DNA of 64,000 bases from Tistrella mobilis (GTDB lineage Bacteria > Pseudomonadota > Alphaproteobacteria > Tistrellales > Tistrellaceae): assembly GCF_041468085.1 (NCBI RefSeq), contig NZ_CP121015.1:372001-436000 (forward strand), read 5' to 3'. This document shows, one piece after another, positions 51,575 through 59,204 of this stretch. The notes beneath the pieces are model-generated. The model was not told the DNA's origin, searched no databases, and was given only the letters and a program-made list of their open reading frames with translations. The first letter of the stretch is position 1. Every line of letters starts with the position of its first letter. The position numbers and the translations under genes were made by a program.

Positions 51575-51967
51575 ATGGCAGACGCCATCCATACACACGC
51601 GCCGGCAGCGCAACAGACGGACATTCTTGAACGACTGGCCCGGCTGCTGGCAGCCGCCGGCCGTGACGCCGCGCTTCATCACCGGCTGTGCCAGGCCCCG
51701 AAGGCCGTGCTGGCCGAGGCCGGCCTGGCCGTGGCCGACGGCGTTCAGGTGACCATCCATATCACGGACCCCGCCGATGCCGCGGCGATTGCCGAGGCGA
51801 CCACCCCGGATCATCTGGTCCTGCCCGTCCCGCCGCTTGCCGGCCAGGATGCGCTGAGCGATGCCGATCTGGACCATGTGTCGGGCGGCAACCGGTTCTA
51901 CGATCAGGTGCAGACCTTCGGCCCCTCGTTCACGACCGGCATCCCGGGCATATTCGGCCTGCGTTGA
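51575..51967 (+). CDS. NHLP/Nif11-type leader peptide RiPP precursor 1
   Basis: The 130-residue precursor starts MADAIHTHAP. Its leader contains LERLARLLAAAGRDAALHHR, then KAVLAEAGLAVADGVQVTI and LVLPVPPL, the pattern of NHLP (nitrile-hydratase-alpha-like) leaders used by proteusin-type RiPPs. It ends LSDADLDHVSGG, a double-glycine-type cleavage site near residue 105. The remaining 25 residues (NRFYDQVQTF..., ending IFGLR) are the presumed core and lack Cys, so lanthionine rings are not possible. First of four paralogues. No C39 peptidase/ABC exporter or modifying enzyme is nearby. The ribosome-binding site is weak. Confidence 0.82.
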   Translation: MADAIHTHAPAAQQTDILERLARLLAAAGRDAALHHRLCQAPKAVLAEAGLAVADGVQVTIHITDPADAAAIAEATTPDHLVLPVPPLAGQDALSDADLDHVSGGNRFYDQVQTFGPSFTTGIPGIFGLR

Positions 51968-51990
51968 CCGCGCAGGCCATAAGCCGGAAT

Positions 51991-52063
51991 GAGACGGACG
52001 GCCGGATTTCAGAGACGGCACGAAAAGTCGGGCCCGGCCGCCCGCGCTATACTGCGGGCATCA
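51991..52063 (+). promoter_or_regulatory. Duplicated promoter segment, copy 1
   Basis: About 70 bases closely match 52488-52557 without gaps. Shared blocks include GACGGCCGG, AGAGACGG, CGAAAAGTC and CGCTATACTGCGG. TATACT at 52048 fits a -10 box; no good -35 consensus is seen 17 bases upstream. It lies about 50 bases before precursor 2. Confidence 0.65.
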
Positions 52064-52103
52064 GCCTGCGCGCGCGGACGCAGGACAGCGAAAGACCGAT
52101 GCC

Positions 52104-52481
52104 ATGCCCGACACCCCCGCCCTCGCCCCGACCGATCCGCTGCACCGCCTGGCCCGGCTGCTCAACGATGCCGCCCATGATCGGGCCCTGCACCAGCGCC
52201 TGCTGGCCGATCCGCGCGCCGCACTCACCGCGGCCGGCATCGCCGTGGACGACGATGTCCGTGTGACCGCCGAAATCACCCCGCCGGCCGAGGCCGCGGC
52301 CGTGGTGGCGCGCACCACCCCCACCTGGCTGATCCTGCCGGTGCCGCCGCTGGCCGGCGATACGGCGCTCAACGACAGCGATCTGGACCGGGTCGCCGGT
52401 GGCGGCTGGTTCAACGACCTGATCTCGGCCATCGGGCCGATCGCCGGATCGGGCATCGGCAAGCTGATGAACGGCCGTTGA
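52104..52481 (+). CDS. NHLP-type RiPP precursor 2
   Basis: The 125-residue paralogue has leader LHRLARLLNDAAHDRALHQR, then RAALTAAGIAVDDDV and LILPVPPLAGDTALNDSDLD, ending at RVAGG. The 25-residue core begins GWFND and continues ISAIGPIAGSGIGKLMNGR. It has no Cys, two GxxxG-like spacings and an amphipathic outline that recalls unmodified pore-forming bacteriocins. It is preceded by promoter copy 1. Exporter and immunity gene are not identified. Confidence 0.82.
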   Translation: MPDTPALAPTDPLHRLARLLNDAAHDRALHQRLLADPRAALTAAGIAVDDDVRVTAEITPPAEAAAVVARTTPTWLILPVPPLAGDTALNDSDLDRVAGGGWFNDLISAIGPIAGSGIGKLMNGR

Positions 52482-52487
52482 CCAGAT

Positions 52488-52557
52488 GAGACAGACGGCC
52501 GGGTTTTAGAGACGGAGCGAAAAGTCCCGCCGGGCCGCCCCCGCTATACTGCGGTCA
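52488..52557 (+). promoter_or_regulatory. Duplicated promoter segment, copy 2
   Basis: Second copy of the element before precursor 2, starting seven bases after that gene's stop. TATACT at 52545 is 36 bases before the precursor 3 start. The duplication suggests that a gene-plus-promoter unit was copied in tandem, and that each unit can be transcribed on its own. Confidence 0.65.
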
Positions 52558-52585
52558 TGACTGCACGCCAGCGGAAGCTTGTTCC

Positions 52586-53029
52586 ATGACCGACGCCACT
52601 GCCGCGACCGAAACCGATGTCCTGCACCACCTGGCCCGGCTGCTGAACGATGCCGCCCACAACCCGGCCCTGCATCAGCGCCTGCTGAGCGATCCGCGTG
52701 CGGCCCTGGCCGAAGCCGGCCTGCCGGTCGACGATGTGGTTACCGTCACGGCCAGGATCACCCCGCCGGCCGACGCGGCCGCCGTCGCGGCGCAGACCAC
52801 GCCCGACCGGCTGGTTCTGCCGGTGCCGCCGCTCGTCTCGGGCACCGAACTCAGCGATGACGAGCTGGAGGCTGTGGCAGGCGGCGGCGCGCTCGCCAAC
52901 ATGTTCAGCAACCTGATCGGCGCCGTCCGCAACGCTTTCGCCCAGATTTTCGGCAAGAAGGTGGATATCGCCGGCGCGGTCGCCCAGCACCATGCCGATG
53001 TGCAGGCCGCACGCGGCAGCCAGGGCTGA
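52586..53029 (+). CDS. NHLP-type RiPP precursor 3
   Basis: The 147-residue paralogue has the same leader (LHHLARLLNDAAHNPALHQR, RAALAEAGLPVDDVV, LVLPVPPL) ending SDDELEAVAGG. The core is longer, about 47 residues. An amphipathic helix (NMFSNLIGAVRNAFAQIFGK) is followed by a hydrophilic His/Gln/Ala-rich end. No Cys. Its N-terminal 60 residues are nearly identical to precursor 2, while the core is unrelated, the usual sign of core diversification. Confidence 0.82.
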   Translation: MTDATAATETDVLHHLARLLNDAAHNPALHQRLLSDPRAALAEAGLPVDDVVTVTARITPPADAAAVAAQTTPDRLVLPVPPLVSGTELSDDELEAVAGGGALANMFSNLIGAVRNAFAQIFGKKVDIAGAVAQHHADVQAARGSQG

Positions 53030-53066
53030 CACCCCCAATCCTTCGCGCAGGGCCCGGAGATCCACC

Positions 53067-53519
53067 ATGGCAGACATCCTTCACCCCACCGCGCCGGACG
53101 CCATGCAGGTGGAGATCCTGACGCAGCTGGCCGGGCTGTTTGATGCCGCCGGCCGTGACCCCGGGCTGTACGACCGGCTGCGCACCGATCCGCGCGCCGC
53201 TTTGGCCGAGGCCGGCCTGCCGCTGGCCCCGGATGTCGAGATTGCAACCGAGATGACGGCCCCGGCCGGTTTCGGCGCCGTGCTTGCCCGCACCACGCCC
53301 GCGCGCCTGGTGCTGCCCCTGCCCGAGCCGGCCGACGGCGAGTTGAGCGATGCCGATCTGGAGACCGTGGCCGGCAGCGGCGCGGCCGGTCGCTTCATCG
53401 CCCATCTGATGGCGATGGGCGCGGGCGTGCTCTTCGCCGTCGGGCTGTTCACAGGCCACTCGGTCAAGGGTGCGGCCGCCAAGACGATCAACGACATCTC
53501 CGCCGTCTACAACAGCTGA
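53067..53519 (+). CDS. NHLP-type RiPP precursor 4
   Basis: The 150-residue paralogue starts MADILHPTAP (GGAG eight bases upstream). Leader blocks EILTQLAGLFDAAGRDPGLY, RAALAEAGLPLAPDV and LVLPLPEP end in SDADLETVAGS, where the second Gly of the usual site is replaced by Ser. The core of about 46 residues is hydrophobic (FIAHLMAMGAGVLFAVGLF) and then polar (KTINDISAVYNS). No Cys. It lies 37 bases behind precursor 3 and is probably co-transcribed with it. The altered cleavage site may affect processing. Confidence 0.8.
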   Translation: MADILHPTAPDAMQVEILTQLAGLFDAAGRDPGLYDRLRTDPRAALAEAGLPLAPDVEIATEMTAPAGFGAVLARTTPARLVLPLPEPADGELSDADLETVAGSGAAGRFIAHLMAMGAGVLFAVGLFTGHSVKGAAAKTINDISAVYNS

Positions 53520-55140: not shown

Positions 55141-56046
55141 TCAGCCCTGCCGCAACCGCTCGCGCAGGCGGGGTGCGGCATGATCCAGGAAGGCCTCGAT
55201 CCGTCGCGGTGCCCGCTCGCGGCCCAGATACACCGCATGCACCACCTCGCTGTCGGCCAGGCAGTCGTCGAGCACGGTGACCAGCCGGCCGGCGGCGATG
55301 TCGTCGCGGACATGGTATTCGGCAAGCCGGGCCAGCCCCAGCCCGGCGCGGGCCATATAGCGCATGGTCTCGCCGTCGCTGACCTGGATCCGCCCCTCTA
55401 CCTCGCGCGCCACCTGGCGGCCGTCGACCGTCATCGGCCAGACCGCGGCGGCGCGGCGGAAATTGAAGCCCAGGCAGTCGTGATCGACCAGATCGTCGGG
55501 CCGCCGCGGCACGCCGCGCCGGGCCAGATAATCGGGCGAGGCCACGATCCGCCGCCGCACCTCGCCCAGATGCACCGCGCGCAGGCCCGAATCGCCCAGC
55601 TTCCCCACCCGGAAGGCGATGTCCACCCGCGCCAGATACAGATCCACCACCTCGTCGGTGAAGGTGAGATCCAGCCGGATCTGCGGATATCGCAGGGTGA
55701 AATCCGGCAGCAGCGGCAGCAGGCAGTGCCGGCCGAAGGGGATGGAACTGTTGATCCTGACCAGCCCCGACGGCACCACCGCCTGGCCGGCGACTTCGGC
55801 CTCCATCGCCTCCAGCTCGGCCAGCAGCGCCTCGGCCCGCTCGCGGTAAACCTCGCCCTCGGGCGTCAACCGCAACCGCCGGGTCGACCGCTCCACCAGC
55901 CGCACCCCCAGCCGCGCCTCGATCCGCGTGATCAGTTTGGCGGTCGCCGACGGCGTCATCCCCAGCTCCCGCCCGGCCGCACTGAAGGCCCCGCGCGCCG
56001 CGACACGCAGAAAGACACGCATTTCCCAGGCGCGGGCGTCGGTCAT
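55141..56046 (-). CDS. LysR-family transcriptional regulator
   Basis: The 301-residue protein has an N-terminal winged helix (FLRVAARGAFSAAGRELGMT, then ITRIEARLGVRLVERSTRR) and a LysR substrate-binding domain (FRVGKLGDSGLRAVHLGEVR and others). Its start overlaps the stop of hsdR by four bases (ATGA), so it is read as the last gene of the restriction operon, unusual for a LysR gene. Its target is unknown; normal LysR divergence from a target is not seen. Confidence 0.92.
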   Translation of the reverse strand: MTDARAWEMRVFLRVAARGAFSAAGRELGMTPSATAKLITRIEARLGVRLVERSTRRLRLTPEGEVYRERAEALLAELEAMEAEVAGQAVVPSGLVRINSSIPFGRHCLLPLLPDFTLRYPQIRLDLTFTDEVVDLYLARVDIAFRVGKLGDSGLRAVHLGEVRRRIVASPDYLARRGVPRRPDDLVDHDCLGFNFRRAAAVWPMTVDGRQVAREVEGRIQVSDGETMRYMARAGLGLARLAEYHVRDDIAAGRLVTVLDDCLADSEVVHAVYLGRERAPRRIEAFLDHAAPRLRERLRQG

Positions 56047-59000
56047 GGGGTGGGGAGCCGGGAGGTGGGGGCGGACATAGCGGCAACGGCACGCGCCTGC
56101 GCCCGACCGCGCAATTCCTCGTAAAGCTCACCCGGCCCCAGCAGGATGTCGCGCAGGCGCTGGCGGACGCGCTCATTGTCCAGGGCCTGGCGGCTCATCG
56201 CGGTATGAGCCTCCAGCGCGTCCATGATGGCGTGAAGAAGGCTCTGATCAAGATCGGGGGATGCGGAGAACTGTTCCTTGCTGTTGCTGACCGCCTGCTC
56301 GCACAGGGTCTCGGATTCCAGCAGCTTCCCCTTGATGACGCTGTTGACGTAGATCAGCTTGTCGTCATCGGTCATGTCGCCTTCGAACAGGTCGTTGATC
56401 CGGGCGATGATCTCGGCCAGCAGGGCCTTTTCCTTGTCCCGGATTTCGCCGCTGCCCGGTGCGGTAAGGGGAGCCAGCTTCTCGGCCTCGCCCGGGCCCA
56501 GAGCCAGGGCACGGCGGCCGCGATTGCGCAGGGAATGATGGGTCAACACCACGCCCGACAGATCGACGCCCTCGCGCTCGCGGCCGAAATCGAGCAGGGG
56601 CAGCAGGCGGCGATAAAAGATCGCCCTTTTCTCGATATCGGTGTTGCCGTAATCGAAGATCTGCGACAGGAAGGTATAGAGCCGCAGGAAGGCGCCCAGA
56701 TCGCCCTTGAACAGGACCAGCGCCGCCATCTCGTCGCGGGCGTCTGCTGCCGTTCGCTCGTCCCCGCTATCCCGCGCCGTTTCCAGCATGTGTTGCAGGG
56801 TCTTGTAGCGGCGGAGCAGCCGGTCGGCGACGGGGGCTATGGCGGCCTGAAGCTGTGCCTGGCTTCCACGCGGGTCCAGCTCCGCCGCAACCACCCGCTC
56901 GACCTCGTTGTCGTCATAATGGCCGAAGGCATCCAGCCGGCTGCGCAGGTCATAGACCAGATCCGGATCGGTAACCGCCGCCAGCTCCGCGGTTTCATAA
57001 TAGGTCTGGAAGGCCGCCAGGATGTCTTCGGGCTCGTTGACGAAATCCAGGATATAGGTCGTATCCTTGCCCGGATGGGCGCGGTTCAACCGTGACAGGG
57101 TCTGCACCGCCTGAATGCCCGCCAGCCGCTTGTCGACATACATGCCGCAGAGCAGCGGCTGATCAAAGCCGGTCTGGAACTTGTTTGCCACGATCAGGAT
57201 CTGAAAGGCGCTGGTGGCAAAGGCCTCGCGGATGTCGCGCCCGGCAAGATCGGGGTTGAGCATCCGGCTGGTTTCGGTGAACGGATCCGGCGCCAGCTCG
57301 GTATCCGTCACCTCGCCCGAAAAGGCCACCAGCGTGCCGATGGAATAGCCCTGCTCGCGGATATAGCGGGTCATCGCCAGCTGCCAGCGGATCGCCTCGC
57401 GCCGGCTTGCCGTCACCACCATCGCCTTGGCGGTGCCGCCCAGCAGGGGGGCCACGGTCTCGCGGAAATGCTCCACCACCACCTGCACCTTCCGGGCGAT
57501 GTTGTAGGGATGCAGCCGCACCCAGCCCAGGATGCCCTTCATCGCGGCGCTGCGCTCCACCTCGCGCTCGTCCCATTCGCGGCCGCCGCTGGCCAGGCGG
57601 AAGGCCAGGCGATAGGGCGTGTAGTTCTTCAGCACGTCGAGGATGAAACCCTCCTCGATCGCCTGGCGCATGGAATAGACATGGAACGGCGCCGGCAGGT
57701 TGTCGGGGCCGGCCGGGCGCGAGGGATCGGGGCGGCGCCCGAAAAGTTCCAGAGTCTTGGCCTTGGGCGTTGCGGTGAAGGCGACATAGGTGACACCGCG
57801 CCGCGCCGCCCGGCCGTCCATGCGGGCGATCAGAAGATCCTCGCTGCCCAGCTCCCCGCCATCGGCCAGATCCTCAAATTCGCGTGCCGACAGCACCTCT
57901 TTCAGCTTCACCGCCGCCTGGCCGGTTTGGGAAGAATGGGCCTCGTCGGCAATCACCGCAAAGCGCTTGCCCTGGGTTGCGGCCAGCCTTTCCACCTCGT
58001 CCAGCGCGAAGGGAAAGGTCTGGATGGTGCAGACCACGATCTTTCTGGACCCGGACAGCGCGGCTGCCAGCCGTCTGCTCTTGCTGCCGTCGACATTGGT
58101 GATGGTCTCCACCACGCCGGTGGTGCGTTCGAAGGCGAAGATCACCTCCTGCAACTGTGCATCCAGAACCGTGCGGTCGCTGACCACAAGCACGGTATCG
58201 AACAGCTTTGTGTCGGTCGCATCATGCAGATCGGCCAGGAAATGGGCGGCCCAGGCGATCGAGTTGGTCTTGCCCGATCCGGCCGAATGCTGGATCAGAT
58301 AGCGGCCGCCGGGCCCGTCTTCGCGCACCGCAGTCACCAGCCTGCGGATGGCGTCAAGCTGGTGATAGCGTGGAAAGATGATCGCCGCGATCCGCTTGCG
58401 GGCATCGCGGGTGGCGACGATATAGCGGCCCAGGATCTCCAGCCAGCTGTCCCGCGCCCAGACCTCCTGCCAGAGATAGGCGGTGGCATGGCCGTCGGGT
58501 ACCGGCGGGTTGCCGGCGGCGCCGTCATGGCCGCGGTCGAAGGGCAGGAAACGGGTGGCGGTGCCGGCCAGTCGGGTGGTCATCCGCACCAGCGTGTTGC
58601 TGACCGCGAAATGGACCAGCGCGCCGCGCGGAAAATCCAGCAGCGGCTCGGCCGCGCCCTGGCCGCGCGGGCGGGGGTCGCGGTCGGTCCGGTACTGGTC
58701 GATCGCATCCTCGACCGCCTGGGTAAAATCGGTCTTGAGTTCGGCGGTGGCGACCGGAATGCCGTTCAGGAACAGCACCAGATCCAGGCAGTTCTGGTTG
58801 TGCAGCGAATAGCGCAGCTGCCGCACCACCCGCAGGCGGTTGGCGGCATAGCGCGCCTGCAATGCCGGGTTCATCCCCAGGGCCGGCCGGAACTGGGCCA
58901 GCATCAGCCGCTGCCGCAGCCCCAGCAGATCCACGCCGTGGCGCAGCACGTCCAGTGTGCCGCGATCATCCAGTTCCCGGCGCACCCGGTTCAGCAGCAC

Positions 59001-59204
59001 ATCGGCCGCATCGGCGCCGTGCCGCTGGCACATCCCCTCCCAGGCCTCGGGCTGGGTGTCGCGCAGCCATGCCAGAAGATCCTCGGGGAAGACGGCCCGC
59101 CGCCGGTCGTAACCGGCGGCGGCGGCCGGATCATACAGCCAGCCATGCGCCGCCAGATGGGCGCAGACATCATCCTCGAACGCGATCTCCCGGTGCAGAC
59201 TCAT
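56043..59204 (-). CDS. hsdR: Type I restriction enzyme R subunit
   Basis: The 1053-residue motor and nuclease subunit has an N-terminal nuclease segment with CLDLVLFLNGIPVATAELKT (PD-ExK type, about 137-155). Helicase motif I is HSAGSGKTNS near 306, and motif II is ADEAHSS near 418 (DEAH box). Later helicase motifs include TFTATPKAKT-like VAFTATPKAK and TLSRLNRAHPGK. It cleaves DNA away from unmethylated sites after ATP-driven translocation, in complex with HsdM2-HsdS. The start overlaps the hsdS stop (ATGA) and its own stop overlaps the LysR start. Length is normal; no inactivating change was seen. Confidence 0.95.
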   Translation of the reverse strand: MSLHREIAFEDDVCAHLAAHGWLYDPAAAAGYDRRRAVFPEDLLAWLRDTQPEAWEGMCQRHGADAADVLLNRVRRELDDRGTLDVLRHGVDLLGLRQRLMLAQFRPALGMNPALQARYAANRLRVVRQLRYSLHNQNCLDLVLFLNGIPVATAELKTDFTQAVEDAIDQYRTDRDPRPRGQGAAEPLLDFPRGALVHFAVSNTLVRMTTRLAGTATRFLPFDRGHDGAAGNPPVPDGHATAYLWQEVWARDSWLEILGRYIVATRDARKRIAAIIFPRYHQLDAIRRLVTAVREDGPGGRYLIQHSAGSGKTNSIAWAAHFLADLHDATDTKLFDTVLVVSDRTVLDAQLQEVIFAFERTTGVVETITNVDGSKSRRLAAALSGSRKIVVCTIQTFPFALDEVERLAATQGKRFAVIADEAHSSQTGQAAVKLKEVLSAREFEDLADGGELGSEDLLIARMDGRAARRGVTYVAFTATPKAKTLELFGRRPDPSRPAGPDNLPAPFHVYSMRQAIEEGFILDVLKNYTPYRLAFRLASGGREWDEREVERSAAMKGILGWVRLHPYNIARKVQVVVEHFRETVAPLLGGTAKAMVVTASRREAIRWQLAMTRYIREQGYSIGTLVAFSGEVTDTELAPDPFTETSRMLNPDLAGRDIREAFATSAFQILIVANKFQTGFDQPLLCGMYVDKRLAGIQAVQTLSRLNRAHPGKDTTYILDFVNEPEDILAAFQTYYETAELAAVTDPDLVYDLRSRLDAFGHYDDNEVERVVAAELDPRGSQAQLQAAIAPVADRLLRRYKTLQHMLETARDSGDERTAADARDEMAALVLFKGDLGAFLRLYTFLSQIFDYGNTDIEKRAIFYRRLLPLLDFGREREGVDLSGVVLTHHSLRNRGRRALALGPGEAEKLAPLTAPGSGEIRDKEKALLAEIIARINDLFEGDMTDDDKLIYVNSVIKGKLLESETLCEQAVSNSKEQFSASPDLDQSLLHAIMDALEAHTAMSRQALDNERVRQRLRDILLGPGELYEELRGRAQARAVAAMSAPTSRLPTP

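What the first reader, a model, noticed from the sequence alone, without database searches (positions are those of the whole stretch)
51575..53519. Array of four NHLP-leader precursors with diverse Cys-free cores
Leaders are conserved (LARLL..A, RAAL.EAGL, LVLPVPPL, ..VAGG) while cores vary in length (25, 25, 47, 46 residues) and sequence and have no Cys. No maturation or export gene is nearby. Their products could be unmodified or trans-processed bacteriocin-like peptides of a new kind.
Basis: partly seen in the sequence, partly recalled or inferred. Interest (0 to 1): 0.8.

Follow-up and report, generated by a model that had tools for sequence, protein, structure and literature searches.

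The report
Cys-free secreted-peptide gene array, exporter elsewhere
Next to ordinary metabolic genes on a secondary replicon, this Tistrella genome carries four conserved genes for small peptides that are probably cut and exported by a transporter encoded on another replicon; they look like a divergent, possibly unmodified branch of a known family of secreted bacterial peptides.

Summary
Four ORFs (51575-51967, 52104-52481, 52586-53029, 53067-53519, +) share a ~100-residue NHLP-like leader ending in GG (GS in the fourth) and have Cys-free cores of 25, 25, 47 and 46 residues. No maturation, export or immunity gene lies nearby. The array is conserved at the same site in all three Tistrella genomes held (4, 5 and 3 members). 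Cores are under purifying selection (pooled dN/dS about 0.25; leaders about 0.45), so it is not a relic. Three of the five core types are homologous to one another. The leaders are related to NHLP (profile-profile 98-99%) but lie below NCBI's TIGR03793 cut-off and carry a ~10-residue insert: a divergent subtype. An alphaproteobacterium of another family shows the same layout: one NHLM cassette and three scattered Cys-free precursors of this subtype. Best reading: precursors exported in trans, probably unmodified, possibly antimicrobial. Neither the lack of modification nor the activity is shown. New variant of a known kind.

The parts
51575..51967 (+). Precursor P1, 130 aa: NHLP-like leader (105 aa, ends VSGG) + core NRFYDQVQTFGPSFTTGIPGIFGLR
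   Evidence: ortholog in one sister species with an identical core
52104..52481 (+). Precursor P2, 125 aa: leader (100 aa, ends VAGG) + core GWFNDLISAIGPIAGSGIGKLMNGR
   Evidence: core homologous to the P5 core of sister species
52586..53029 (+). Precursor P3, 147 aa: leader (100 aa, ends VAGG) + 47-aa core with a strongly amphipathic first half
   Evidence: orthologs in both sister species, one frameshifted in the core tail
53067..53519 (+). Precursor P4, 150 aa: leader (104 aa, ends VAGS) + 46-aa hydrophobic core
   Evidence: core dN/dS 0.10-0.12 over three species
52004..52061 (+). Conserved 58-bp upstream element of P2 (GAGACGgcacGAAAAGTC ... CTATACTGCGG), possibly a promoter or regulatory site (ends approximate)
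   Evidence: no sigma-70 consensus match
52501..52558 (+). Same conserved 58-bp element upstream of P3 (ends approximate)

Best explanation
The four genes encode precursor peptides of a divergent, long-insert subtype of the NHLP leader family. The structured leader keeps the peptide in the producing cell and hands it to a C39 peptidase-ABC exporter encoded elsewhere, most likely the NHLM cassette on contig C4. The peptidase cuts after GG/GS and the cassette, with TolC, releases a linear Cys-free peptide. The 25-26-residue cores are glycine-rich, probably amphipathic helices with a central Pro and a terminal Arg; P3 and P4 have longer cores. They most likely act outside the cell as membrane-active, class II bacteriocin-like peptides. 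SHOWN: gene reality, conservation in three species, purifying selection on the cores, leader homology to NHLP, presence of complete exporters, absence of linked enzymes. INFERRED: cleavage and export in trans, lack of modification, and antimicrobial rather than signalling function.
For: Leader homology: hhalign against canonical NHLPs 98.3%/E 2e-14 and 99.0%/E 7e-18; a profile of the array finds the solved NHLP leader 8tb1 in the PDB at E 2e-8. LSDxDLxxVxGG/S is the double-glycine signature. Complete NHLM cassette in the genome and its C39 subunit in all three species. Leader conservation in NHLPs was attributed to handling by this transporter rather than by modifying enzymes (PMC2887384). Purifying selection on cores: excess of synonymous change, Fisher p 1e-5 pooled, P4 core p 2e-4. 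P2/P5 cores alike beyond shuffles (0 of 2000) and amphipathic moment above shuffles for P1, P3, P5. In genome G317 of another family, one NHLM cassette (1077 bits) has no recognisable precursor in its surroundings, while three lone Cys-free precursors with the same leader insert sit elsewhere with no obvious RiPP enzyme in the ~3 kb around each. The genome's LanM and YcaO genes each have their own Cys-containing candidate precursor nearby.
Against: No direct evidence of cleavage, export or activity. No immunity gene in the array. Net charge only +1 to +2. The fourth leader ends GS rather than GG. Leaders score below the TIGR03793 cut-off. Structure models are of low-to-moderate confidence (mean pLDDT 67.5 and 62.7; cores about 40-65). 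The conserved upstream element was not found near the exporter, so co-regulation is unsupported. One species has a frameshifted P3 core tail. LanM, YcaO and 27 radical SAM genes exist in the genome, so modification in trans is not excluded.
Confidence: 0.5

Rival explanations
1. The same precursors are modified in trans by an unlinked enzyme (LanM dehydrating Ser/Thr, a radical SAM epimerase or methyltransferase, or an unknown enzyme) before export, i.e. they are true but scattered RiPP precursors.
For: The genome has LanM genes on C2 (L083) and C4 (L084), a YcaO, and 27 radical SAM genes. NHLP precursors far from their enzymes are on record (PMC2887384). All five core types hold Ser or Thr.
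Against: No Cys for lanthionine or thiazole rings. Each LanM and the YcaO has its own Cys-containing candidate precursor nearby. Of ten radical SAM proteins scanned, the only RiPP maturase over its cut-off belongs to the GDL-motif system. The C2 LanM was not found in the third species, which keeps three array members.
Confidence: 0.25
2. The peptides are exported as above but serve as signals or as envelope/biofilm components rather than antimicrobials.
For: Core sequences are nearly fixed between species (P1 and P5 identical, P4 one to a few changes), which is more like a conserved signal than an arms-race toxin; no immunity gene.
Against: Several paralogous core types per genome and gain and loss of members between species fit a toxin repertoire better; the cores are hydrophobic and in part amphipathic.
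Confidence: 0.2
3. A decaying relic: duplicated leader genes without a working pathway.
For: P3 of T. mobilis is frameshifted in the core tail; members differ between species.
Against: Purifying selection on both leader and core, the other eleven copies intact in three species, a conserved upstream element, and exporters present in all three species.
Confidence: 0.05

Closest known systems
NHLP leader family RiPP precursors (TIGR03793; Haft et al. 2010, PMC2887384)
   Same: Leader order of three helices, strand, strand, then an LSDxDLxxVxGG end; tandem arrays with one leader type; genomes with the NHLM (TIGR03794/03796/03797) cassette
   Different: Below the curated cut-off; a ~10-residue insert (AAVVARTTPT-like) between the two strands; no Cys in the core; no adjacent enzyme or exporter; leader ~100 aa
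Canonical NHLPs of the same genome (C1 array, C4 pair beside the NHLM cassette, C4:2456k)
   Same: GG leaders, Cys-free cores
   Different: Most pass the cut-off, lack the insert and have unrelated cores
Class II (unmodified) bacteriocins / class II microcins
   Same: Double-glycine leader, C39 peptidase-ABC export available, short partly amphipathic cores
   Different: Folded ~100-aa leader instead of a short one; no immunity gene; activity unknown
Nitrile hydratase alpha subunit
   Same: Leader shares the helix-strand pattern (best PDB fold matches, Z 5.2, 4.5 A over 106 residues)
   Different: Not an enzyme; the structural match is weak and covers the leader only

Membership tests
NHLP leader family (TIGR03793) | Score over NCBI's curated cut-off (50.9 bits) | tested here: not met
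   34.5, 36.8, 33.6, 24.2 bits
NHLP leader family (TIGR03793) | Homology to NHLP leaders over the whole domain | tested here: met
   hhalign 98.3-99.0% over 79 columns; PDB 8tb1 E 2e-8
NHLP leader family (TIGR03793) | GG-type cleavage motif ending the conserved part | tested here: met
   GG in P1-P3 and P5; P4 has GS in all three species
NHLP leader family (TIGR03793) | NHLM export cassette in the genome | tested here: met
   TIGR03794/03796/03797 all over cut-off at L009, C4; C39 subunit over cut-off in all three species
Modified RiPP (lanthipeptide / TOMM / proteusin) | Dedicated modification enzyme linked to the precursor | tested here: not met
   Flanks are acyl-CoA metabolism and GST genes in the three species
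Modified RiPP (lanthipeptide / TOMM) | Cys in the core for lanthionine or thiazole | tested here: not met
   No Cys in any intact core of the array
Class II bacteriocin / microcin | Double-glycine leader with a C39 exporter available | tested here: met
Class II bacteriocin / microcin | Adjacent immunity gene | tested here: not met
   No further gene called between the GST and enoyl-CoA hydratase genes
Class II bacteriocin / microcin | Unmodified peptide with antimicrobial activity | not testable with these tools
   Needs mass spectrometry and killing assays

The most novel reading that the evidence does not exclude
A distinct subfamily of NHLP-type leaders (long insert between the two strands) works as a carrier for unmodified, linear peptides: precursors scattered over the genome share one unlinked NHLM exporter with no modifying enzyme, forming a dispersed Gram-negative class II bacteriocin-like system that gene-cluster search tools would miss.
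Probability: 0.35. Interest if true: 0.65.

Novelty: new variant of a known kind. Interest (0 to 1): 0.45.

Why it matters
NHLP leaders are studied mostly as docking platforms for modifying enzymes. A conserved, enzyme-free branch with intact cores under selection would suggest that the leader's basic role is export, would open a class of short linear peptides in alphaproteobacteria that cluster-based mining misses (in T. mobilis the genes are annotated 'hypothetical protein'), and would make the question 'can NHLM exporters serve precursors encoded elsewhere?' directly testable.

Tried and rejected
Relic hypothesis: rejected on the substitution pattern. Chance ORFs: rejected by codon usage, conservation and leader homology. 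Double NHLP hits at C4:4021k and C1:548k in the own genome, and at C12 in G317, are nitrile/thiocyanate hydratase alpha-like genes, not precursors; the one at C4:3790k is a precursor-like gene. Shared upstream element as a link to the exporter: not found in the fetched exporter or other precursor loci. Sigma-70 promoter and terminator scan: nothing above chance. A genome-contig scan for relatives gave only two weak distant hits; the class-wide profile search (385 genomes) gave two further genera, one with canonical NHLPs (G260) and one with the insert subtype (G317). A leader-versus-core difference in constraint is suggestive only (Fisher p 0.07 for P4, 0.5 pooled), so I claim only that the cores are constrained, not that they are more constrained than leaders. 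17 of the 27 radical SAM proteins were not scanned by family. Fold matches not listed by the aligners are not excluded.

Full report
1. What is there. The window is G000:C2:372001-436000 of a 6.3-Mb genome in 4 contigs. Four + strand ORFs lie between a GST gene and an enoyl-CoA hydratase gene: P1 51575-51967, P2 52104-52481, P3 52586-53029, P4 53067-53519. A codon-usage caller trained on other genes of the genome picks these four with these starts and each scores best in its own frame. They and their orthologs share 27 invariant columns, all in the leader, which ends in LSDxDLxxVxGG (GS in P4). Cores are 25, 25, 47 and 46 residues, none with Cys.

2. Leader family. TIGR03793 leader_NHLP is the best NCBIfam hit of each protein, but at 24-37 bits against a curated 50.9. 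A profile of the array against canonical NHLPs of the same genome and one other genome aligns over 79 columns with 98.3-99.0% probability, with a gap of about ten residues: the array's leaders carry an insert (AAVxARTTP-like) between the two strands. The profile finds the NMR structure of an NHLP leader (8tb1) at E 2e-8. AlphaFold models of P3 and P2 put three helices, strand, short helix, strand, helix in the leader (pLDDT about 77-88 over residues 11-80 of P3) and a helix over the core at low confidence; the best PDB fold matches are nitrile hydratase alpha subunits, Z 5.2 at 4.5 A over 106 residues, and 8tb1 at Z 4.6. These are weak but agree with the family's name. I therefore call them a divergent, long-insert NHLP subtype, not members by the curated threshold.

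3. Conservation. Among 385 genomes drawn from the class, the array itself is found only in three genomes of one genus. One is Tistrella mobilis KA081020-065: G002 contig C2 has the length and coordinates of plasmid pTM1, NC_017957.2, where the three genes are annotated as hypothetical proteins between the same GST and enoyl-CoA hydratase genes. Content differs: window genome P1-P4; second species P1-P5; T. mobilis P3-P5, its P3 frameshifted in the core tail. Synonymous divergence between the window genome and the second species is low for GST, P1 and P2 (0.05-0.09 for GST and the two leaders; the short cores have too few sites) but 0.31-0.37 for the P3 and P4 leaders, the P4 core and enoyl-CoA hydratase (0.56 for the P3 core), while the second species and T. 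mobilis differ by only about 0.05-0.13 over P3, P4, P5 and enoyl-CoA hydratase. This points to a recombination joint between P2 and P3, so the array seems to be shuffled between species.

4. Selection. Pooled dN/dS is 0.23-0.26 for cores and 0.43-0.48 for leaders; the P4 core is 0.10-0.12. The excess of synonymous change in cores is significant (p 1e-5 pooled, 2e-4 for P4). The core/leader difference itself is not significant. This speaks strongly against a relic.

5. The cores. P2 and P5 cores are homologous (score 58, none of 2000 shuffles as high) and P1 joins them (p 0.001 to P2); the alignment shows a central Pro and a terminal Arg. Helical moments exceed shuffles for P1, P3 and P5 (p 0.04, 0.001, 0.02), not clearly for P2 and P4. 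Net charge is +1 to +2. So the 'diverse' cores include one 25-26-residue family plus two longer types.

6. Machinery elsewhere. Contig C4 has a complete NHLM cassette: HlyD (TIGR03794, 271 bits), C39-ABC (TIGR03796, 1042), ABC (TIGR03797, 835), then TolC and two NHLP precursors, one over the cut-off. A second C39 cassette lies at C4:2.099 Mb (849 bits against 853.3) beside a 192-aa protein with a short GG leader. Both C39 proteins are present in all three species. Canonical NHLPs also occur as an array of five on C1 and at C4:2456k, all with Cys-free cores. Modifying enzymes exist: LanM on C2 (with a Cys-containing candidate precursor about 1.2 kb downstream), LanM on C4 (with an adjacent Nif11-like Cys-containing precursor), one YcaO (with a Cys-rich precursor), and 27 radical SAM proteins, of which ten were scanned and one is a RiPP maturase over its cut-off, of the GDL-motif system. 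None is linked to the array.

7. An independent case. Genome G317, of another family, has one NHLM C39 exporter (1077 bits) whose surroundings hold HlyD, both ABC proteins and TolC but no NHLP precursor or modifying enzyme that I could recognise. Its three precursor-like NHLP genes lie at C2:277k (about 50 kb away), C16 and C17, each alone among other genes, each Cys-free in the core and each aligning with the array across the insert. The same layout in another family favours export in trans as a normal mode for this subtype. Modifying enzymes elsewhere in G317 were not searched.

8. Mechanism. Shown: conserved genes under selection, NHLP-type leader, cleavage motif, exporters in the genome. 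From established knowledge (mine, not tested here): C39 domains cut after GG/GA/GS-type motifs and couple cleavage to export. Haft et al. argued that NHLP leader conservation reflects handling by this transporter (PMC2887384). Inferred: export by the C4 cassette, absence of modification, membrane activity. Rivals are modification in trans and a signalling or structural role.

9. Regulation. A 58-bp element (GAGACG...GAAAAGTC...CTATACTGC) lies upstream of P2 and P3 in every species that has them and, at that score threshold, nowhere else in the fetched loci; its core occurs just twice in the window, at these two sites. It may be a promoter but no sigma-70 consensus fits. A shared duplication origin of the two genes is an equally good reason for the likeness.

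10. Novelty. NHLP arrays, precursors remote from their machinery and NHLPs in species lacking known enzymes were already reported (PMC2887384), and recent work treats NHLP leaders as docking modules for enzymes (PMC12455567). I found no paper in the searched library on this insert subtype or on enzyme-free NHLP arrays, which is weak evidence given the library's limits. Verdict: new variant of a known kind.

Noticed in passing
L011 6729-7928 and 7844-8782 (- strand; G000 C4:2.454-2.456 Mb): Two genes without any Pfam or NCBIfam hit lie beside two NHLP precursors (one with core NVDWNNLHFPM); a homolog of the first (26% identity, E 2e-6 pairwise) lies beside an array of NHLP precursors ending in ..NW/..SW in genome G260 (L057). 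They could be enzymes of an undescribed RiPP type.
   Followed up: partly
L049 6201-13115 (G000 C4:2.096-2.103 Mb): Second NHLM-like export cassette, just under the TIGR03796 cut-off, with a 192-aa protein that has a short N-terminal GG leader (TDEDLAQVTGG) and a large Gln-rich cargo; the C39 protein is present in all three species.
   Followed up: partly
L050 4299-4880 (- strand; G000 C4:3.790 Mb): A lone precursor-like protein with two NHLP-like domains in tandem, then VAGG and a Cys-free tail; no RiPP enzyme beside it.
   Followed up: no
L083 6072-10719 and L084 5545-8661: Two LanM-like genes, each with a Cys-containing candidate precursor nearby; the L083 candidate repeats CIDADASVSAAAVTF / CIDVDASVSAAAISW.
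   Followed up: no
G000 C1:212611-224445 (L099, L103, L109, L112): A cluster of four radical SAM genes, at least three resembling B12-binding types (BchE/PhpK/HpnJ models, below cut-off); possible unknown biosynthetic cluster.
   Followed up: no
window 51575-53519 versus L039 and L040: A recombination joint between P2 and P3: left of it the window genome matches the second species, right of it the second species matches T. mobilis.
   Followed up: partly
L010 9291-11169 (G000 C1:469-471 kb): Canonical NHLP array whose cores begin with a Trp-containing stretch (AWNT, SWSP, AWNP, NWGI) near a cyclic-peptide ABC exporter and siderophore-uptake-like genes.
   Followed up: no
window 56043-59204 (- strand): A large ORF that reads like the restriction (HsdR) subunit of a type I restriction system; not checked against a database.
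   Followed up: no
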